Shown here piece by piece: positions 5,556 through 55,478 of a stretch of DNA of 61,028 nucleotides. The stretch is from Pseudomonadota bacterium (GTDB lineage: Bacteria > Pseudomonadota > Gammaproteobacteria > Arenicellales > UBA868): assembly GCA_018672825.1 (NCBI GenBank), contig JABHUE010000059.1, forward strand, positions 1-61,028, given 5' to 3'. The stretch's first letter is position 1, and each line of letters opens with the position of its first letter. The notes under the pieces are model-generated. The model made no database searches, was not told where the DNA came from, and worked only from the letters and a program-made list of their open reading frames with translations. The position numbers and the translations under genes were made by a program.

Positions 5556-7697
5556 CTAGAAGGATGACCGCCCAACGAACAGAAACTGCGGGTCGAGCGC
5601 CCGGGGACTGGATCCAACTACCTGAGATTGAAGGGAAAGATAAGCGCCAATATCGAATTGATCCGTCCAGGGCATCCGATATCCGACTTCCACTAATCCC
5701 TCAATCCCGCTAGTCGCAAAATTAATTCGATCCTGATATCGCAACACTCGGTTGTTTGGATCGATCCCGTAGGCAATATCCACATCAGCAGACCCGGAGT
5801 TAATACTGAGCGGCTGGGCAATTGTTAGCGAAACGCTGTCTCCAATTTTAAAAATCTCACGACCGCTCAAACCCAACATCCAAGCACTGGAAACCAAGTC
5901 AGAAAAATTCGTCAAAGATGAGCCAGTCTCAGAGTTCACCTCCGTATACCCTCCAGTCACCGAACCGACTAACGCAGTTTGAGCTGAAAGCATTCGATAG
6001 CCTGAAAATCTGAGGAATCGTGTCTCGGCATGATCAACGGCGAATGGGCCGCTTGCGGTTCCCCCAAAAAGACTCTTGCCCTCTGATAACCACCCACCCT
6101 CAATAGTGGCGCCAAAATCTCCAAACCTGACGTGCGAGGCCGCCGTGATCTGGGACCCTTGATAATTGTTGTCACTCGTATCATCTATGTCTGAATATCT
6201 TAAATCAAAGCCTACGCCAGGCGTCGCTTCAAAAGCGATCAGGCTATGTACGCCATCAGCGTCATAGTCCCCTAGACGGATTTTGCTATTCAAGAAGCTG
6301 CTCGGATTTAAAAACCCTTTCAATGACATCGCAAGGAAGGGGTCAGACTCAGCCTTTGGAAGCACCCCAAACCCGAGGTGACTCTGCAGTCCTTGCTCAT
6401 TCAAGGAACTGACAAGTAATACAGGATCTGTCGTCTGATCGTTATTAAATTGAGCGGGCGTAAATGAAAAGATTTGATGAGCAGATGATTGACCAATCAA
6501 GGCGGGCGTCTTCCCACGCTGCCAATCAGAATAAAATGAACGAGCTGAATTCATTGCGCCTTGCTCTTTCAGTGATGCTGAAAGATTCCAGTTAAAATCC
6601 CGATTAAACTGATCAAAAACCAAAACGCTCTCAAAAAATCCGCTTTCTTTCAACGCATTGAAAAGGGGTGCTCCAACGGTAAGCCGATGCAAAGAGACCT
6701 CTGTTGACTCAACGTCATCATCGCTCGACTCCTCTTCTTCGGTGGTCTCGGCTGGACTCGTTGTCCCTGGAGTTGACGGCGTATATACCAGGCCGATGGG
6801 CGAATAAGCCCTTGTGGGATTAATTTTTCCCCAGCCATATTTGGCATCCACTCCAGGCGCACCCATATCGGTCGCGGTTCGCTTGATAACCGCAACAATC
6901 TCCTCAGCTCTCAGATCTGGCCAACGAAAACGCAGGCCCGCCGCCAACGCGCTCACTCGCGGCGTGGCGAACGACGTACCCCAATAGTCTGCAAATTGTG
7001 ACGATCCCGTCGCAACCACATAATGCTGGGCCATATCACCAGCGTGGTTGCCAAATCCGAGCATCTCATCCTCAGGACCCAAGCCGCCAACGATTATCCC
7101 TTTCCCGGACAAACCGGGAGCATGTCGGGCGTCTCCAACGGGATAAGGTGCCCAGTTATTACCGGCTTGCATTACAACGACCTGATCGGCAACCGCGGTG
7201 GCCAGCATGGCCGCGCCAGAAACGCCTGCGAGCGCTGCGTTGGAATGGATAATCACTCGGATGTTCGGATTTGCTGCAGCGGCCATTAGGGCAGCTTCGA
7301 CCGCGCTACTCGAAACTGATTTCGATCCGGTCGAAGTCTGAAGCGACAAAATCTTACTTTGGGGTGTCAGGGTAAGAATGATCTGGGCTACCGCCGTACC
7401 ATGCGTTCCCTGCTTCGCTAGATCGACAAAAGGATTTTGACCCACATAACTTGCACTACCCGGCACAAATAACCCGGGATTAACGGCCGGATTCAACTGA
7501 ATGCCGGTGTCCAAAACGGCGACGCCGATTCCGGCTATTGGAGCTGGCGCAGGAGGTGGCGCTTCCACCTCCTCATCTTCCTCAACGACTGAGGCCGCGA
7601 AATCCCCGTCCCCGCCCTCCGCAAAAGCAAAGCCGGAATAAAAAACAAATAACGATAAAACAATCCATCCGATTGGAGTGCTGAAAAGATTCTTCAT
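5556..7697 (-). CDS. Secreted S8 (subtilisin-like) serine protease with autotransporter-like C-terminus
   Basis: 713 residues. An N-terminal signal peptide (charged MKNLF, hydrophobic core, cleavage near AFA-EG) precedes an acidic and proline-rich linker (residues 36-54). The catalytic domain follows with the S8 triad Asp63 (VAVLDTGI), His99 (GTHGTAVA) and Ser242 (GTSFATPRVS). An acidic Ser/Thr/Glu linker near residues 305-330 leads to a roughly 370-residue C-terminal part with alternating polar/hydrophobic strands ending in Phe, the usual outer-membrane barrel signature. This resembles autotransporter subtilases, but I cannot confirm a complete barrel. Single gene, followed by a hairpin at 5520-5540; start ATG at 7697. 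Confidence 0.85.
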   Translation of the reverse strand: MKNLFSTPIGWIVLSLFVFYSGFAFAEGGDGDFAASVVEEDEEVEAPPPAPAPIAGIGVAVLDTGIQLNPAVNPGLFVPGSASYVGQNPFVDLAKQGTHGTAVAQIILTLTPQSKILSLQTSTGSKSVSSSAVEAALMAAAANPNIRVIIHSNAALAGVSGAAMLATAVADQVVVMQAGNNWAPYPVGDARHAPGLSGKGIIVGGLGPEDEMLGFGNHAGDMAQHYVVATGSSQFADYWGTSFATPRVSALAAGLRFRWPDLRAEEIVAVIKRTATDMGAPGVDAKYGWGKINPTRAYSPIGLVYTPSTPGTTSPAETTEEEESSDDDVESTEVSLHRLTVGAPLFNALKESGFFESVLVFDQFNRDFNWNLSASLKEQGAMNSARSFYSDWQRGKTPALIGQSSAHQIFSFTPAQFNNDQTTDPVLLVSSLNEQGLQSHLGFGVLPKAESDPFLAMSLKGFLNPSSFLNSKIRLGDYDADGVHSLIAFEATPGVGFDLRYSDIDDTSDNNYQGSQITAASHVRFGDFGATIEGGWLSEGKSLFGGTASGPFAVDHAETRFLRFSGYRMLSAQTALVGSVTGGYTEVNSETGSSLTNFSDLVSSAWMLGLSGREIFKIGDSVSLTIAQPLSINSGSADVDIAYGIDPNNRVLRYQDRINFATSGIEGLVEVGYRMPWTDQFDIGAYLSLQSQVVGSSPRALDPQFLFVGRSSF

Positions 7698-11528: not shown

Positions 11529-13070
11529 TCACATCTCTTTCGTTCCAATCTCGCGCTTTCGTCGCTGAACATATTCGCTTAATTCCTCACGTCGATCGTC
11601 ATCAAATTTAGGTGGCTCAAAGTTCTCCAAAACTGATTGCCAAATCTCCGTTGCCCGACGGGTCGCATCCTTGGCGCCAGCCGCTTGCCAGTTTTCATTA
11701 TTCTGCCAATCACTTAAAAACGGCGTGTAGAACGCAGACTCGTATCGCTCCATGGTGTGTTCCGCGCCGAAAAAATGTCCACCCGGCTCAACGCCGGAGA
11801 TCGCATCAACCGCAAGCTCGTCTACAGAGGTGTCAATCGGTTTCAGCATTTCGGACAAATGCTGAATCACTTCAACATCAATCACAAATTTCTCGAAAGA
11901 TGCGACAAGGCCACCCTCTAACCAGCCCGCGGCATGATAAACAAGATTACCGTGCCCCATGACGGCGCCCCAAAGTGCCATTTGGGTCTCATAGGTACTC
12001 TGGACATCAACCGAATTTGACGCATTACAGGCACTCGTGCGGTACGGCAGTCCGTAGCGACGGGCCATCTGTCCCCCGGCAAGATTCGCCTTTGCATTTT
12101 CTGGCGTTCCAAAGGTTGGCGCGCCTGATCGCATATCAACATTAGACGTAAATCCGCCATAGACCACAGGGCTTCCCGGAAACGCCATCTGTATCATTGA
12201 CAGGCCCAATAAAGCCTCCGCATTTTGCTGTACCAGCGCAGCGGCCATTGTGACTGGCGTCATCGCACCCAAAAGTGTAAACGGCGTTACGATAACCGCC
12301 TGACCGAGCTCAGCAAGCGCCAACGCCCCATCAGACATTGCCTCATCTAGCTTTCGTGGCGAATTAATATTGATATTTCCGATAAGACCTGGACTCCGAT
12401 GCAGTTCGTCCAAGCTGATGCCCCGAGCAATTGCGACCATGTGCGCCGCGTCGACGACGCGCTCTTTTCCAATCGGTATCGCAGAAAAGATCTTATCGGT
12501 CAGAGTCAAATTGGCCTCATAACAATCCAGATGACGGGTCGGCACTGGAAGATCCGTAGTCGCTACCGACTGATTTCCAAATACACTAATGACATTAAAG
12601 GCTTGTCCGAGACTGATTAATTTCTTGTAATCAGCAAAATTACCAGCCCGCCTGCCCTGAACGCAATCGTGCACATTCGGCGGACCGGAAACGGCGCCGA
12701 AATTCACCTGGGAGCCGCCGAGCGTTACCGTATGATCACTATTGCGAGGTGTGAGTCGAATCTCTCGAGGGGCCCGAGAAATCAACTCAATAATCATTTC
12801 GGGATCAACTTTAACAATCCCCGTATCGTCATCAACAGAAGCACCTTCGCGGCTAAATTGAGCCCTGACCGACGCGCTCATGACTTCGATTCCGGAGTCA
12901 CGCAGCAGGCAAAGCGAAGCGTTGTGAATCTCTTCAACCTGCTCCTCGGACAAAGGATTAATTGGAGGATAGCGATTATTGAGCGGACCAAATCCGATCT
13001 GAGAGATACCCGCCCCACTGCGACTCGCGCGACGCTCTTTTCGCGCGCGGTTCCTATCTATGCGACTCAT
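11529..13070 (-). CDS. Trimethylamine methyltransferase (MttB) family protein, non-pyrrolysine
   Basis: 513-residue TIM-barrel protein of the MttB superfamily, recognised from its overall pattern (for example GSPVVYGGFTSNVDMRSGAP and the C-terminal GGHFFGAEHTMERY). True MttB uses an in-frame UAG for pyrrolysine; this gene reads through without one, so it belongs to the non-Pyl branch, whose known members demethylate quaternary amines such as glycine betaine with a corrinoid partner. No corrinoid protein or reactivase is encoded in this window. It is 51 nt downstream of the M20 hydrolase and probably in one transcript with it and the EamA transporter. Substrate unknown. Confidence 0.88.
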   Translation of the reverse strand: MSRIDRNRARKERRASRSGAGISQIGFGPLNNRYPPINPLSEEQVEEIHNASLCLLRDSGIEVMSASVRAQFSREGASVDDDTGIVKVDPEMIIELISRAPREIRLTPRNSDHTVTLGGSQVNFGAVSGPPNVHDCVQGRRAGNFADYKKLISLGQAFNVISVFGNQSVATTDLPVPTRHLDCYEANLTLTDKIFSAIPIGKERVVDAAHMVAIARGISLDELHRSPGLIGNININSPRKLDEAMSDGALALAELGQAVIVTPFTLLGAMTPVTMAAALVQQNAEALLGLSMIQMAFPGSPVVYGGFTSNVDMRSGAPTFGTPENAKANLAGGQMARRYGLPYRTSACNASNSVDVQSTYETQMALWGAVMGHGNLVYHAAGWLEGGLVASFEKFVIDVEVIQHLSEMLKPIDTSVDELAVDAISGVEPGGHFFGAEHTMERYESAFYTPFLSDWQNNENWQAAGAKDATRRATEIWQSVLENFEPPKFDDDRREELSEYVQRRKREIGTKEM

Positions 13071-33299: not shown

Positions 33300-33602
33300 A
33301 TGCTCCGAATACAGTGCCCCTTTTGCGGTCTTCGTGACCATAGCGAGTTCAGTTATGGCAGCGATGCCTCGGTTGAATATCCGCCGCTCGATGGCTCTCA
33401 AGAGGCGTGGCATGACGCCGTATTCCAAAGAGAAAATATCGATGGTGTCCAATTGGAAACTTGGCAACATACATTAGGGTGTCGAATGTGGATTGTCGTG
33501 GAACGCAACACACGGACGCATGACATCCTCTCTGTTCGACCCGCCCACGACGGAATGGCTCAAGCGCTCAACACGTCTCTAATTACCGAGCCTGACCAAT
33601 GA
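33300..33602 (+). CDS. soxD: Sarcosine oxidase, delta subunit
   Basis: 100 residues, normal delta-subunit size. N-terminal MLRIQCPFCGLRDHSEF carries the CxxC (Cys6, Cys9) that with 'HTLGCRMW' near residue 60 forms the small zinc site. Structural subunit of the heterotetramer. Overlaps soxA by 4 nt. Confidence 0.95.
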   Translation: MLRIQCPFCGLRDHSEFSYGSDASVEYPPLDGSQEAWHDAVFQRENIDGVQLETWQHTLGCRMWIVVERNTRTHDILSVRPAHDGMAQALNTSLITEPDQ

Positions 33603-36580
33603 ATACGCGTAGATTACCCACCGGCGGACAAATTAATCGCGCCAAACCATTAGAGTTTGAGTGGGACGGCAAACCCCTGGCGGGATATGAGGGTGACAGT
33701 CTCGCATCTGCTTTATTGGCAAGTGATGAAACCATTCTCGGTCGCAGCTTCAAATATCACCGCCCGCGTGGACTGATGTCGGCCGGCGTCGAAGAATCAG
33801 GCGCAATCGTGACTATTGGTACTGGAGCCCGAAGAGACGCAAATGTTAAAGCAACCTCCCAGGCACTGTACGACGGCCTAGTTGCAAAAGGACAAAATGC
33901 CTGGCCCAGCGTTCGAAACGATTTTGGCGCCGTTAATAGCCTCTTCGGCCGGTTCTTTAGCGCCGGTTTTTACTACAAAACTTTCATGGGGCTGCCGCCG
34001 TTTGAGTGGGGCAAGGGAACTGGCGCATGGATGTGGTACGAAAAAATAATTCGAAAGGCGGCCGGCATGGGGACAGCATCGCGAGAAGCTGATCCCGATG
34101 CCTACGAGCATGCAAATGGCTACTGCGATATCTTAGTTGTTGGCAGTGGGCCGGCAGGACGCGCCGCCGCACTCTCGGCGGCGCAATCCGGCTGTGATGT
34201 GGTCCTTGTTGAGCAAGACTTTGCACTGGGAGGTGAAAGCCTGTCCCGAGTCGAGGAAGCTGACACGCTCTCGCAAGAGTTAGCGGCACTTCGCGCTGCC
34301 GGCGTACGACTAATGGAAAATACTACTGCCTTCGGCTTATATGATGGTGGTGTTGCGGGCTTGCTCGAGCGGGTAACCGATCATCTTTCAGCGCCACCGC
34401 AGTGGATGCCGAGACAACGATTCTGGACAATGCGGTCCAGATTCACAGTCATTGCATCGGGCGCCCTGGAGCGTCATCTTGCGTTCGGCAATAATGACCG
34501 ACCAGGGATCATGACCGCAAACGCAGCAAAAATTTATCTCAATCGATATGGAATACTCACGGGTGAGAATATCGTCATCGCCACCAATAACGACTCAGCT
34601 TATCTAACAGCATCGAGCCTTTCGAATGCCGGAGCCTGCGTGACATTGCTCGATTCTCGCGAGCAAATCTTGAACTCATCACAATCAGGAGTGCAATCAA
34701 CCGGCGTCGACGTGAAGTCCGGCATGTCCATCCTAAATGCAAAAGGATCCAAGGGCGTTTATTCAATTGACCTTGCAGAAAAATCTCCTGACGGATGGCG
34801 AGCCAAAAATCAAATGGCATGCGACCTTCTCTTGATTTCAGGCGGCTGGTCGCCGGTCGTTAATCTTTTATCGCACCGCGGGCTAAAGCCCGTCTGGGAC
34901 AGCGTTAACGCGTGCTTTATTGCACCTGATCATCATGAACCTATTGCAATGGCAGGCAGTGCAGCTGGAATTTGGGATCACGCCGGCTGTGTTCAGTCTG
35001 GCGAGAAGGCGGCAGATCACGCTGTAGCCCATCTGCATGGCCAGCGAGCTGAAACATCCAATAAATCCGGAGGATGGCAAACACCCATTGAGGGGCTGTA
35101 TGAGATTTCGGTATCCGGACACCAACACAAGTCTTTTGTGGATCCTCAGCACGACGTCACTGCCGATGATATTCGACTCGCACATCAAGAGGGATTTGTA
35201 TCTGTCGAGCATCTAAAACGATACACCACGCTGGGTATGGCAACTGATCAGGGTAAAATGGGAAATGTCATTGGGCTTGCGCTCATGGCGGAAGCGCTTG
35301 GAAAAGAAATTCCCGAAGTCGGCACCACCACATTCCGACCCCCCTATACCCCAATTAGTATCGGCGCACTTAAGGGGCGTAATGTGGGCTCCCATTTTCG
35401 AGCATTGCGTAGAACGCCATTGCACGATTGGAATTTAAATGCGGGCGGCACAATGACGATGGCCGGGTTATGGCACCGTCCTTGGTACTTCGCCCAACCT
35501 GGCGAAGGAATCGGTGAAGCTTATGTTCGTGAAACTGAAACCGTCCGCAGAACGGTTGGTGTATGCGACGTTACGTCACTCGGAAAAATTGCGGTTCAAG
35601 GACCAGATGCGACTGAATTTCTAAACCGGGTCTATACCAACCCGTTTGCAAAACTCGCCGTCGGTAAAGCGCGTTACGGCATCATGCTAAGAGACGATGG
35701 ATTTGTCATGGATGACGGAACCACCTGGCGCCTTGCTGAAAACAACTACTTCATGACGACCACGACAGCTCACGCAGCGAAGGTGATGACTTTTCTTGAA
35801 GAACTCTTGCAAACTCGTTGGCAGGATCTTCGTGTTCACCTAACCTCGGTCTCAGAGCAATGGGCAGGTATTGCCGTAGCAGGACCACAATCCCGTGAAG
35901 TGATCACCGAGTGCGCTGCAGATCCTCGCGAGGTTACGGACCGCGCCCTGCCTTTCATGGGCGTTATTGAAACGACTCTAAAAGGTAACATCCCTGTAAG
36001 GATTGCCCGAATCAGTTTTTCGGGCGAACGCGCTTTTGAGATTTACACACCCTCTGACTATGGTCCGGCGGCAATGGACATGATTTGGAGCGCCGCAAGA
36101 GTCCGCAAAGGCTGTCTTTATGGACTCGAAGCGCTAGGCGCCCTTCGTATCGAAAAAGGTCATGTCACCGGCGCCGAACTAGACGGTCGCGTGACCATTG
36201 AAGATGCCGGTTTGGGTCGAATGGCATCAGACAAAAAATCTTATATTGGCAGCGTCCTTAAAAACCGTCCTGAACTCTTAAAAGACGACCGTCCTCGCCT
36301 TGTTGGGATATTCCCAAAAGACCGCAGAGAAATCTTTAACGCGGGATCGATTCTCTGCCAGAATGGCAACGTTTCTGGTTATGGGAACGGCTGGGTGACC
36401 GCAGTCACTCACTCTCCTGCCCTCGGCCATTGGATTGGGCTCGGATTTATCGAAGGGGGGCATTCGAATTGGATTGACCGCGAGGTCGTTTGTGCCGATC
36501 CGCTTCGAAAAGGAAATACGCCTGTCGAAATCGTCTCCCCACATATGTTTGATCCATCCGGAGAACGCATGTATGGCTAA
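33599..36580 (+). CDS. soxA: Sarcosine oxidase, alpha subunit
   Basis: 993 residues, full length. Order: N-terminal ferredoxin-like Fer2_4 domain (about 10-100; 'FEWDGKPLAGYEGDSLASAL', 'RGLMSAGVEE'), FAD/NAD-binding domains with 'LVVGSGPAGRAAALSAAQSG' (about 180-200), and a C-terminal GcvT-type aminomethyltransferase domain (about 600-993; 'VGVCDVTSLGKIAVQGPDA', 'YGLEALGALRIEKGHVTGAE') that uses tetrahydrofolate to capture the methyl carbon. Overlaps soxD at its start and soxG at its end. Confidence 0.96.
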   Translation: MNTRRLPTGGQINRAKPLEFEWDGKPLAGYEGDSLASALLASDETILGRSFKYHRPRGLMSAGVEESGAIVTIGTGARRDANVKATSQALYDGLVAKGQNAWPSVRNDFGAVNSLFGRFFSAGFYYKTFMGLPPFEWGKGTGAWMWYEKIIRKAAGMGTASREADPDAYEHANGYCDILVVGSGPAGRAAALSAAQSGCDVVLVEQDFALGGESLSRVEEADTLSQELAALRAAGVRLMENTTAFGLYDGGVAGLLERVTDHLSAPPQWMPRQRFWTMRSRFTVIASGALERHLAFGNNDRPGIMTANAAKIYLNRYGILTGENIVIATNNDSAYLTASSLSNAGACVTLLDSREQILNSSQSGVQSTGVDVKSGMSILNAKGSKGVYSIDLAEKSPDGWRAKNQMACDLLLISGGWSPVVNLLSHRGLKPVWDSVNACFIAPDHHEPIAMAGSAAGIWDHAGCVQSGEKAADHAVAHLHGQRAETSNKSGGWQTPIEGLYEISVSGHQHKSFVDPQHDVTADDIRLAHQEGFVSVEHLKRYTTLGMATDQGKMGNVIGLALMAEALGKEIPEVGTTTFRPPYTPISIGALKGRNVGSHFRALRRTPLHDWNLNAGGTMTMAGLWHRPWYFAQPGEGIGEAYVRETETVRRTVGVCDVTSLGKIAVQGPDATEFLNRVYTNPFAKLAVGKARYGIMLRDDGFVMDDGTTWRLAENNYFMTTTTAHAAKVMTFLEELLQTRWQDLRVHLTSVSEQWAGIAVAGPQSREVITECAADPREVTDRALPFMGVIETTLKGNIPVRIARISFSGERAFEIYTPSDYGPAAMDMIWSAARVRKGCLYGLEALGALRIEKGHVTGAELDGRVTIEDAGLGRMASDKKSYIGSVLKNRPELLKDDRPRLVGIFPKDRREIFNAGSILCQNGNVSGYGNGWVTAVTHSPALGHWIGLGFIEGGHSNWIDREVVCADPLRKGNTPVEIVSPHMFDPSGERMYG

Positions 36581-37130
36581 TCGTTGCTCCGCGCTTGCGG
36601 CTTATTACCCGACCGGACTCCATGGTCGACCTGGAGAGCCCGGGGTGAAACTACAAGAAATTCCCGATCTTAGCCTTTGGCAAATTGCCGGATGGCCGGA
36701 CACGATGGAATTGATCCATTTGGCAATCACCGACGGTATGAACTCAGATCGGTTGCCCGCTGGGCGAGCACTCGCAGGATCAAAAGGCGTTGCCTTTCAA
36801 GTGGAACCTCTAAAGTTTTGGTTATTAGCAGAGGCGCCACCCGTTTTTAAGGAAGCCCACGGGGTTATCCTTGACCTATCGCACTCGCGGACGCAGATCC
36901 GGATATCGGGTCCGGAAGCCCAAACCTGCTTAAGCCGGCTTCTCCCTCTCGACCTTCGAGATCACAGTTTCCCCCAAAACGCCGTGGCGTCTAGCGGTAT
37001 CCATCATGTCGGAATAACGCTTTGGAGGAGTGAGCTCGGGTTTGAGCTGTTTATCCCAAGAGGATTTGCACGGTCTATCTGGGAATTGCTTCTCGAAACT
37101 GCTGAACAATTTGGATCCGAAGTCATCTAA
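36573..37130 (+). CDS. soxG: Sarcosine oxidase, gamma subunit
   Basis: 185 residues from the ATG at 36573, which overlaps the soxA stop by 8 nt; an earlier in-frame ATG lies deep in soxA. The 'LSHSRTQIRISGPEAQTCLSRLLPLDLR' region (in two parts: HSRTQIRISGPEA, then LSRLLPLDL) is typical of SoxG. Its TAA shares bases with the TAG of the convergent amine-oxidase gene, so there is no room for a separate terminator. No glyA or purU follows, unlike many sox operons. Confidence 0.92.
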   Translation: MANRCSALAAYYPTGLHGRPGEPGVKLQEIPDLSLWQIAGWPDTMELIHLAITDGMNSDRLPAGRALAGSKGVAFQVEPLKFWLLAEAPPVFKEAHGVILDLSHSRTQIRISGPEAQTCLSRLLPLDLRDHSFPQNAVASSGIHHVGITLWRSELGFELFIPRGFARSIWELLLETAEQFGSEVI

Positions 37131-38500: not shown

Positions 38501-39727
38501 TCAATTCGCGACTCGACCCAAGGTCGTGATCACGCCCGTCAGGTAGTTGTGATACTTAAAATAGCCCATCGGCGTGCCTAAATAGCCATCCACTCGCCAA
38601 GCATTGTCGACTGCGATGTCGACCTGAGAGAAGTTCTCGCTGTCATAACGAGGGTCATAGGCGGCATGAGTATGATACGAGGCCATCGCATACCCATTGG
38701 GCACATCATCGGGCGATCCAATGTTGACGCTATCTACGGTCCCCTTTATTGGCTCAGTCGCGCTAAATGTTGCGTCCGCGTTCTGGTAAACCCACCCGCC
38801 GTATTCCAGATTCTGCGCTACCGATGTTGGATTAATTTTATTCAATACATCTTCGGCAGCGTCGTGTTGTTTGGTAAACCGAATTTGCGTGTCTGCCTTG
38901 TCACTGCCTGAAGACGCTACTAACGCGACACCGACAGCAGAAGCCGCGAGAATTGCGGTACTCATCGTACCTAATCCAGATGAGCCCCCTTCTGTACCCC
39001 ACATCTCATCTGGACGACCAAAACTTCCGTTGTAGGAAAACAACCACCGCTGATAGTTTCCTTCCCGAAACCGCTCGCTTGAACCACTCTGGAATTCCAG
39101 AGCAACTCGATGCTTTCGGTTTATAGGCATCTGCCATTTGATCAATCCAGATTCTGTTCCATCATCCGCGTGGATGTATCGGGCGTTCAAATCGACCCCA
39201 GATAATGCAAAGCCCCCGCCAACTGCGTGTGCAGCAACGTTTTCGCCAACTTCCACTCGAAAAATCTGAACGTTTGAATGTGTCGTTTGCGCGCCCGCAA
39301 ACCAATTGATTCGATCCTCAACATCGCCAGCCTCTATCTGCGCCACACCAACTGCAAAATGAGCGCTCTGTCCTTGGGAAAACTGAAAGGTGGCTCCTGA
39401 ATAATGAGCAGATCTCGAATAATCCGAGTGAAAAAGCCGGGCATCCCGTGCGTTGAAAGAAAATGCATTGGATAGATCCGAAAGTCCGTCAGTATTACCG
39501 AAAAAGCCACTGATTCCTGCATCAGGCCCAGCCAGGCCAGACAGGAAAAACTGGCTACCTTGCGAAAACGCCGCTACCGATTGGAATCCAAGCCGGTCCT
39601 GCTCACTTGAAAAATTAATCCAGAGTGGGTCGGAGTTTGCCCCAGATTGACCAAGAACTGGGATAATGCCGCTCACCGGCAGACCTAGAAGCAAAAGAAA
39701 CACTGCAGCCGTATCTGACGTTTTCAT
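38501..39727 (-). CDS. Secreted protein with C-terminal DUF4329-like, JAMM-resembling domain
   Basis: 408 residues. Signal peptide (1-26), a strand-rich secreted region (about 30-245) and one hydrophobic alanine-rich helix (about 252-272). The C-terminal domain (285-408) matches my memory of DUF4329, a domain otherwise met at the ends of Rhs-type toxins. That domain shows Glu308 (EYGGWVYQ), then SYHTHAAYDPRYD with His352 and His354, then FSQVD with Ser367 and Asp370: the residue order of a JAMM/MPN zinc-hydrolase site (Glu, HxH, SxxD) with a longer gap than usual. Whether it is a toxin, peptidase or structural module is unknown; no immunity-like gene is adjacent. Confidence 0.78.
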   Translation of the reverse strand: MKTSDTAAVFLLLLGLPVSGIIPVLGQSGANSDPLWINFSSEQDRLGFQSVAAFSQGSQFFLSGLAGPDAGISGFFGNTDGLSDLSNAFSFNARDARLFHSDYSRSAHYSGATFQFSQGQSAHFAVGVAQIEAGDVEDRINWFAGAQTTHSNVQIFRVEVGENVAAHAVGGGFALSGVDLNARYIHADDGTESGLIKWQMPINRKHRVALEFQSGSSERFREGNYQRWLFSYNGSFGRPDEMWGTEGGSSGLGTMSTAILAASAVGVALVASSGSDKADTQIRFTKQHDAAEDVLNKINPTSVAQNLEYGGWVYQNADATFSATEPIKGTVDSVNIGSPDDVPNGYAMASYHTHAAYDPRYDSENFSQVDIAVDNAWRVDGYLGTPMGYFKYHNYLTGVITTLGRVAN

Positions 39728-54347: not shown

Positions 54348-55478
54348 ATGCAGAAGTCCCACATTTTTCACCCCAGACCGGTCGCGTATGAAGACTTAAT
54401 CGGCCACAATATTCTTATTCATATCCCACGAACCGCCGGCACTTTCTTTAATAATTGTCTTCGCGCAAACGGCCTAGCCGTTGTCGATCATATTCAGCGA
54501 TTTATTGATTCATCGGAAAGCATTAAACACACCCCAACCAGACGTCAATTATCGAACCGGTCGACATGGATTTCCGGTCATGTCCGTTACGACACGCTCA
54601 CCCGCATCTTCCCTCCTGAAAAAGATACGAGATATTTTGTCCTGCTTCGCAATCCGATCAATCAACTCATTTCACAAATCAACTGGCAAGCGGAGACATT
54701 ATGTGGCTCCTACTTATCCCTAGCGCGAATGCCCCTTTACCAATTTCGTATTCTCATGCACGTCTGCCTTGAGGCGTTAAATCGCCCGCAGAATGTTCCC
54801 AATGTATTAAATCGGTACTTTGGGTCATTCCTGAATAATCAATGCCGATCCCTCTCCCTTATGAATAGTGGGCGATTACGTACCGACGACTTTAATTTGT
54901 TTTCCGCCCGATGCTACGCACGCTTGCTCGAATTGGACGGATTCAGTGTTGAATCCGGTCTTGATCCTTTTATCAAAGCCGTTATATCAGAGAATCGGGG
55001 GAATAATCACACCCAAATTATTCCACCCCGCTCTGCCCAAAACCGTTCTCATCCTGTCTTGGATAATGGCCTTGTATCGTCTGAAGAATTTCGACTCAAG
55101 ATTTTTAATCTTCAACTTGCTGACTATATTCTTTATCAAAATGCACTTGGAATTTTGAACGGGGAGCAAAGTCCGAGGCGCTGGCAAAACTTCAATGAAC
55201 TCAAGCATGACTGCGAGGGATTAGCCGTTGGTCAAAAGTCACCGGAGGTTGTCCGTAATGAAAAATTTGTTCTGAAAACCCAATCAAGAACCGAAAAATT
55301 ATTCTTTACCGCAAGGGTCATGCGATCGGTCGCCAAAAGACTTGTTGCCCTTCAAAAATTTTCATTGTTTCAGCAAGTATTCAGGTGGTGCAAAAGGCTC
55401 CCTACCAGTTGCCGCTCCTTACCTTTGAAAGCCGTCAGTCTTACTGTACTGAATCGCTGGAACGGGCGAAAATGCTAA
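54348..55478 (+). CDS. Sulfotransferase family protein
   Basis: 376 residues, no signal peptide. PAPS-binding 5'-phosphosulfate loop IPRTAGTFFNN (residues 26-36) and 3'-phosphate motif FVLLRNPINQLIS (97-109) with Arg101 and Ser109. 'WISGHVRYD' (His79) matches the GHxxY-type motif of heparan 2-O/6-O sulfotransferase-like enzymes. Transfers sulfate to a hydroxyl, probably on a carbohydrate. The gene and the next 1.7 kb look more AT-rich than their surroundings, suggesting transfer from elsewhere. No glycosyltransferase is adjacent. The C-terminal 110 residues are basic and unassigned. Confidence 0.82.
   Translation: MQKSHIFHPRPVAYEDLIGHNILIHIPRTAGTFFNNCLRANGLAVVDHIQRFIDSSESIKHTPTRRQLSNRSTWISGHVRYDTLTRIFPPEKDTRYFVLLRNPINQLISQINWQAETLCGSYLSLARMPLYQFRILMHVCLEALNRPQNVPNVLNRYFGSFLNNQCRSLSLMNSGRLRTDDFNLFSARCYARLLELDGFSVESGLDPFIKAVISENRGNNHTQIIPPRSAQNRSHPVLDNGLVSSEEFRLKIFNLQLADYILYQNALGILNGEQSPRRWQNFNELKHDCEGLAVGQKSPEVVRNEKFVLKTQSRTEKLFFTARVMRSVAKRLVALQKFSLFQQVFRWCKRLPTSCRSLPLKAVSLTVLNRWNGRKC

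What the first reader, a model, noticed from the sequence alone, without database searches (positions are those of the whole stretch)
38501..39727. Secreted DUF4329-like protein with a JAMM-type residue order
Glu308, His352-x-His354, Ser367 and Asp370 follow the JAMM order but with a gap of 13 rather than about 8 residues between HxH and Ser. The domain is usually toxin-linked, yet here it is on a signal-peptide-bearing, strand-rich protein with no evident immunity gene.
Basis: partly seen in the sequence, partly recalled or inferred. Interest (0 to 1): 0.58.

Follow-up and report, generated by a model that had tools for sequence, protein, structure and literature searches.

The report
Secreted JAMM-like envelope protein, unlikely toxin
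This marine bacterium carries a secreted protein whose end resembles a zinc enzyme domain best known from bacterial toxins, but here it looks like an old, inherited cell-envelope protein whose relatives often come with a small secreted helper of a kind not found in the family libraries searched.

Summary
The gene is on the minus strand (39727 to 38501, 408 aa). The C-terminal domain is DUF4329 (Pfam, 97.9 bits), with Glu308, His352-x-His354, Ser367 and Asp370 in place. The 13-residue HxH-to-Ser gap is no quirk: 26 of 27 DUF4329 sequences have it, and a 2012 paper already files DUF4329 as Tox-JAB-2. New here is direct support for JAMM kinship: a profile comparison with 30 Prok-JAB sequences aligns all five residues and beats 400 of 400 column shuffles. 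A toxin role is not supported: the gene is syntenic in its family and most conserved at the supposed 'toxin' end (47 of 47 comparisons, dN/dS 0.05-0.06). The strand-rich N-terminal domain (probably an outer-membrane beta-barrel, not shown) matches nothing in Pfam or PDB. Across the order the gene is often followed at once by an undescribed secreted ~150-aa protein (all 23 genomes with it also carry the DUF4329 gene), absent from the window's genus. Most likely: an envelope metallohydrolase, probably a peptidase.

The parts
38501..39727 (-). whole gene, 408 aa, ATG at 39727, stop 38501-38503
   Evidence: one copy in the genome
39647..39727 (-). signal-peptide-like N-terminus, residues 1-27
   Evidence: read directly from the translation; relatives also begin with hydrophobic leaders; no predictor run
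38990..39646 (-). strand-rich N-terminal domain, residues 28-246, probably a beta-barrel of roughly 12 strands
   Evidence: near-constant length, 214-227 aa in 34 relatives; no Pfam or PDB relative; alternation z 2.69; found only on DUF4329 genes in 100 genomes
38909..38965 (-). Gly/Ala-rich hydrophobic segment, residues about 255-273, ending in SSG
   Evidence: hydrophobic in 53 of 53 rows (best 17-residue Kyte-Doolittle mean 1.30-2.36); SSG conserved; residues 247-287 show 0 non-synonymous against 19 and 7 synonymous changes in two pairs
38522..38866 (-). DUF4329 (Tox-JAB-2) domain, residues 288-402
   Evidence: Pfam PF14220, 97.9 bits; family profile match to Prok-JAB
38804..38806 (-). Glu308 codon, first residue of the JAMM order
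   Evidence: 54 of 54 rows
38666..38674 (-). His352-Thr353-His354 codons
   Evidence: both His in 54 of 54 rows
38618..38629 (-). Ser367 to Asp370 codons (SxxD); Glu364 lies three residues before Ser367
   Evidence: 53 of 53 rows; spacing table

Best explanation
It is a secreted cell-envelope protein: a signal peptide, a strand-rich domain that probably forms an outer-membrane beta-barrel, a hydrophobic Gly/Ala segment, and a C-terminal DUF4329 domain of the JAMM/JAB superfamily. The domain most likely binds one zinc through His352, His354 and Asp370, with Glu308 as general base and Ser367 as helper, and hydrolyses a peptide or isopeptide bond in the periplasm or at the cell surface. It is a vertically inherited resident protein, not a delivered polymorphic toxin. 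In much of the order it goes with an undescribed small secreted partner coded directly downstream; the window's genus lacks that partner. Shown: domain identity, fixed residues, JAMM-like profile match of the family, synteny, selection pattern, partner linkage. Inferred: zinc, peptidase chemistry, barrel, location, role and loss of the partner.
For: DUF4329 hit. hhalign of 27 DUF4329 sequences against 30 Prok-JAB sequences: score 26.3, E/HxH/S/D in register; 0 of 400 column shuffles reach it (max 20.7), reversed profile 14.1. Residues fixed in the family. DUF4329 more conserved than the N-terminal domain in 47 of 47 comparisons (medians 57% and 18%), dN/dS 0.05-0.06 against 0.22-0.24. In the family, the divergent EamA gene flanks it in 15 of 15 genomes examined and the DAO oxidase lies downstream in 13 of 15. 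N-terminal domain exclusive to this architecture in 100 genomes, amphipathic. Partner: 25 of 26 places adjacent, one at a contig end.
Against: No structure: AlphaFold failed twice. HxH-Ser spacing departs from the canonical motif, and the protein matches neither the Prok-JAB nor the RadC model; no profile match to RadC; the barrel-type set alone scores only 15.0 against Prok-JAB. No substrate, metal or localisation data. The near-constant length of the N-terminal domain is unusual for an outer-membrane barrel with free surface loops. A hydrophobic segment after a barrel is unexplained. Papers seen label DUF4329 an RNase, and the JAB paper itself leans to a nuclease for the toxin versions.
Confidence: 0.55

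Rival explanations
1. It is a contact-dependent or shed antibacterial toxin whose DUF4329 end is the warhead; the small secreted downstream protein of relatives is its periplasmic immunity protein, and the window's genus is protected some other way.
For: DUF4329 is catalogued as Tox-JAB-2, with an immunity protein in E. coli and as candidate T6SS warhead. A small secreted gene sits directly downstream in 29 of 61 genes with enough downstream DNA, as an immunity gene would.
Against: Partner found in none of 20 genomes of the window's genus (window's included), 17 of which keep the DUF4329 gene with the catalytic residues; the tree needs 7 changes of partner state. C-terminal domain conserved and N-terminal domain variable (47 of 47), the reverse of polymorphic toxins. 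Syntenic in its family and single in this genome. Pfam sees DUF4329 alone, no delivery module.
Confidence: 0.15
2. The domain is a nuclease (RNase or DNase) acting on extracellular nucleic acid, for example for nutrient scavenging, rather than a peptidase.
For: DUF4329 is labelled RNase in two effector papers; Zhang et al. argue that toxin JAB domains may be nucleases like RadC.
Against: In the passages seen the RNase label rests on annotation and citation; the best profile kin found here is Prok-JAB, and none was seen with RadC.
Confidence: 0.15
3. The domain is a catalytically quiet binding module: the JAMM residues hold a structural metal or are a fold remnant and the protein is a porin or surface structural protein.
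For: No activity data were found for any DUF4329 outside toxins; fixed residues could hold a structural metal.
Against: All five catalytic-type residues plus Glu364 are fixed in the family and across stand-alone forms (one Ser to Thr); dN/dS 0.05-0.06.
Confidence: 0.1

Closest known systems
Tox-JAB-2 / DUF4329 (PF14220), Zhang et al. 2012, PMC3482391
   Same: Same domain family by Pfam score; same E, H[ST]H, S, D residues as listed in that paper's table.
   Different: There a toxin tip on Rhs, T6SS, T7SS or similar proteins, with Imm-NTF2 family 2 in E. coli; here on a resident strand-rich protein with no such neighbour.
Prok-JAB (PF14464) and other JAMM metallopeptidases
   Same: Profile comparison of the DUF4329 family aligns Glu, HxH, Ser and Asp.
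   Different: HxH to Ser is 13 rather than about 8 residues, an extra fixed Glu three before Ser, no match to the Pfam model, exported rather than intracellular.
RadC (PF04002)
   Same: Named with JAB in the literature seen.
   Different: No profile match to DUF4329 (score 10.8, as low as unrelated controls) although RadC matches Prok-JAB (34.6).
Stand-alone secreted DUF4329 proteins (180-289 aa frames) elsewhere in the phylum
   Same: Leader plus DUF4329, same residues and spacing.
   Different: No strand-rich domain, extra conserved cysteines, no partner gene found near them.

Membership tests
DUF4329 / Tox-JAB-2 (PF14220) | score over the curated Pfam cut-off | tested here: met
   97.9 bits against 28.6
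DUF4329 / Tox-JAB-2 (PF14220) | E, H[ST]H, S, D residues | tested here: met
JAMM/JAB superfamily | profile-level kinship with an established JAMM family | tested here: met
   hhalign score 26.3 against Prok-JAB, 0 of 400 shuffles as high; weak for the barrel-type set alone (15.0) and absent against RadC
JAMM/JAB superfamily | canonical spacing H-x-H-x(7)-S-x(2)-D (spacing recalled; visible in Prok-JAB rows) | tested here: not met
   HxH to Ser is 13, S to D is 3; so not filed as a canonical JAMM protein
JAMM/JAB superfamily | residues meet in one zinc site in the fold | tested here: inconclusive
   AlphaFold pLDDT 26.7 and 30.9
JAMM/JAB superfamily | bound zinc and hydrolase activity | not testable with these tools
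   needs protein
Prok-JAB (PF14464) / RadC (PF04002) | match to the Pfam model | tested here: not met
   only DUF4329 found up to E 10; no match of either model in the genome
Polymorphic toxin | conserved delivery part with a variable C-terminal tip | tested here: not met
   C-terminal domain the more conserved in 47 of 47
Polymorphic toxin | delivery module (Rhs, PAAR, LXG, FilH and the like) | tested here: not met
   Pfam and NCBIfam find none
Polymorphic toxin | immunity gene next door | tested here: not met
   window neighbours are a DAO oxidase and EamA; a partner exists in relatives only
Outer-membrane beta-barrel protein | signal peptide | tested here: inconclusive
   read by eye only
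Outer-membrane beta-barrel protein | alternating amphipathic strands | tested here: met
   z 2.69, p 0.0035; controls DUF4329 z 0.9 and partner z -1.22
Outer-membrane beta-barrel protein | kinship with a known barrel family, or a barrel fold | tested here: inconclusive
   no Pfam or PDB match; no usable model

The most novel reading that the evidence does not exclude
A two-gene envelope system not found in the papers searched: an outer-membrane-tethered JAMM peptidase and a dedicated secreted partner whose C-terminus, ending exactly in Lys or Arg in 22 of 23 cases, is the substrate or the gate of the active site, much as JAMM enzymes elsewhere act on protein C-termini. This would be a JAMM system of the cell envelope that is not a toxin.
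Probability: 0.15. Interest if true: 0.75.

Novelty: new variant of a known kind. Interest (0 to 1): 0.48.

Why it matters
DUF4329 is treated in print as a toxin tip, and Zhang et al. wrote that all earlier prokaryotic JAB domains were intracellular. A resident, exported form with its own N-terminal domain and a linked secreted partner would show where the toxin domain may have come from, and would give a JAMM-type enzyme in the bacterial envelope a testable role. It also warns against calling any DUF4329 protein an effector or RNase by name alone.

Tried and rejected
No fold search was run on such models.

PDB by sequence or profile: nothing significant for the whole protein, DUF4329, partner or N-terminal domain. 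In one search a JAMM1 chain (5lda) appeared at E 2.0, which is no evidence.

Viral and phage links: none (viral contigs; phage records); one PHROG of unknown function matches residues 256-378 at 6.3e-8. Plasmids: two Rhizobium phaseoli records with a short DUF4329 protein.

Kinship of the N-terminal domain with the strand-rich C-terminus of the subtilase at 5556-7697: no (E 0.33). Kinship of partner and DUF4329: no. A Prok-JAB alignment of three sequences was too thin (E 0.053, 0.016, 0.0098); 30 sequences did better. Promoter and terminator scan: no promoter-like site, one terminator-like site on the other strand, not above shuffles. The organism's name was not pursued; the two named close relatives are MAGs labelled Gammaproteobacteria bacterium and Candidatus Thioglobus sp.. 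DUF4329-like matches in a 2051-aa frame are under the cut-off and the stretches read lack HTH, so they were not counted as a toxin. Literature searches with JAMM and periplasmic terms gave nothing on topic in the listing; a search for a named Vibrio effector led nowhere.

Full report
What is there. The finding's stretch holds one gene, read on the minus strand from 39727 to 38501, 408 aa. It is the only DUF4329 gene found in the 2.57-Mb genome, which is held at about 93% completeness. Order of parts: a signal-peptide-like start (read by eye), a strand-rich domain of about 217 residues, a Gly/Ala-rich hydrophobic segment ending in SSG, and DUF4329 at residues 288-402 (97.9 bits, cut-off 28.6). 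NCBIfam, PADLOC and PDB give nothing of weight.

The motif. In an alignment of 54 rows (the window included) Glu308, His352 and His354 are fixed in 54 of 54, Ser367 and Asp370 in 53 of 53, the missing row being cut at a contig end. The HxH-to-Ser distance of 13 is the rule of DUF4329: 26 of 27 sequences chosen from barrel-type, stand-alone and plasmid proteins have it, one has 11; a Glu three residues before the Ser is equally fixed, and in one row the Ser is Thr. Zhang et al. 2012 (PMC3482391; passages seen) list 'Tox-JAB-2 (DUF4329 in Pfam)' with E, H[ST]H, S, D, so the motif is already in print.

Is it JAMM-like? The published assignment was tested afresh. Aligned with 30 Prok-JAB domains from other genomes (29 of the 30 loci, one dropped because the script found no clean HxH frame, plus one), a 27-sequence DUF4329 profile gives hhalign score 26.3 over 67 columns; the Glu, both His, the Ser and the Asp fall on their JAMM counterparts, with the five extra residues placed as an insertion. 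None of 400 column-shuffled versions reached that (mean 11.2, SD 2.3, maximum 20.7); the reversed profile gave 14.1. A set of 13 made mostly of stand-alone DUF4329 sequences scores 32.8; the barrel-type set alone only 15.0, and RadC gives no match (10.8), while RadC against Prok-JAB gives 34.6 as a positive control.

Toxin or resident? Against a polymorphic toxin: (1) compared with the window protein, the DUF4329 end is more conserved than the N-terminal domain in 47 of 47 relatives (medians 57% and 18%), and against the two nearest relatives dN/dS is 0.05-0.06 for DUF4329 and 0.22-0.24 for the N-terminal domain, the opposite of a conserved delivery part with a changing tip. (2) The gene is syntenic in its family: among 15 other genomes of the family whose surroundings were examined, the divergent EamA gene flanks it in 15, and the DAO oxidase lies next downstream in 13 (in one of these with the partner gene between); in one more there is another gene between, and in one no oxidase was seen. 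(3) It occurs in 50 of 100 relatives searched with the protein (the window's own genome is one of the 100) and 54 of 109 genomes of the order by the Pfam model, but in only 7 of 274 in a class-wide sample that includes the window's genome. (4) In a phylum-wide sample of 398 genomes, 13 had an over-cut-off match; besides the window's these were 12 genomes with 14 genes in open frames of 180-289 aa, all with a hydrophobic leader by eye and all with HTH. Toxin-linked forms exist in the literature (passages seen), but they did not appear in these samples.

The N-terminal domain. It has a near-constant length (214-227 aa in 34 relatives), no Pfam or PDB relative, and in 100 genomes (48 with a match) the full matches sit on DUF4329 genes, the remainder being pieces at contig ends. 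Its hydrophobicity alternates residue by residue more than shuffled columns do (z 2.69, p 0.0035; DUF4329 z 0.9 and partner z -1.22 as controls; the scale counts Trp and Tyr as hydrophobic by my choice). This fits a beta-barrel of roughly 12 strands (counted by eye) but does not prove one; the constant length argues for caution.

A second gene. In order-level relatives a secreted protein of about 150 aa follows the DUF4329 gene directly (9-85 bases between matched domains). A profile of 21 such proteins hits 23 of 100 genomes, at 26 places; all 23 genomes also hold the DUF4329 gene, 25 of the 26 places are adjacent to it, and the last lies at a contig end of a genome whose DUF4329 gene is also cut at a contig end. 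Among DUF4329 genes with at least 450 bases downstream, 29 of 61 have it; the script printed 29 of 64, but three rows with scores below 2 were second pieces of genes already counted. The family has no convincing match in Pfam or NCBIfam (six members scanned), PADLOC (21 members) or PDB. It has two Cys around a GY motif in nearly all rows, and 22 of 23 end exactly in Lys or Arg. On a quick tree of 55 rows the partner state needs 7 changes (6 forced by well-supported branches), against 18 in shuffles, so an old module with repeated loss is the simplest reading. Two DUF4329 genes in tandem can flank one partner (loci L081, L095); on the tree the second copies were labelled 'none'. The partner was found in none of the 20 genomes of the window's genus (the window's included) while 17 keep the DUF4329 gene, with its residues intact as far as the contigs reach. 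An immunity protein should not be lost while the active toxin stays, so the partner is more likely a helper, regulator or substrate. That last step is inference.

How it most likely works. Exported through the inner membrane, the N-terminal domain seats the protein in the outer membrane, and the DUF4329 domain hydrolyses a peptide or isopeptide bond in the envelope using zinc held by His352, His354 and Asp370. Zinc, chemistry, side of the membrane and substrate are inferred from established knowledge of JAMM peptidases. Rivals are an antibacterial toxin with the partner as antidote, a nuclease, and a non-catalytic module.

Novelty. The domain and its JAMM order are known. Searches for 'DUF4329' (5 papers), 'Tox-JAB-2' (2 papers), JAMM with periplasmic terms and JAB domain with polymorphic toxin terms showed in their listings and in the passages read no report of this barrel-like architecture or of the partner; the held library lacks most subscription journals. 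Hence 'new variant of a known kind'.

Noticed in passing
window 5556-7697 (-): Subtilase (Peptidase_S8, 78 bits) with a long strand-rich C-terminal part that Pfam does not recognise, perhaps autotransporter-like; not related to the N-terminal domain of the finding by profile.
   Followed up: partly
window 36435-37130 (+) overlapping 33599-36580 (+): A GCV_T-type frame overlaps the end of the 993-aa sarcosine-oxidase-alpha-like gene (name recalled) by about 145 bases in another frame as listed from its TTG; both are conserved in relatives.
   Followed up: no
window 11529-13070 (-): MttB-family methyltransferase (625 bits) in a window that also holds several FAD-dependent oxidoreductase-like genes.
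   Followed up: no
L081 161-2708 and L095 1-2113: Two DUF4329 genes in tandem with one partner gene between them.
   Followed up: partly
L056 2014-2556 (-): A short leader-plus-DUF4329 protein without the strand-rich domain in a genome that also holds the long form.
   Followed up: partly
G073:C45 and G081:C1: Relatives with an in-frame stop in the N-terminal domain or in DUF4329: decaying copies or assembly errors.
   Followed up: no
window 54348-55478 (+): 376-aa frame with no Pfam match.
   Followed up: no
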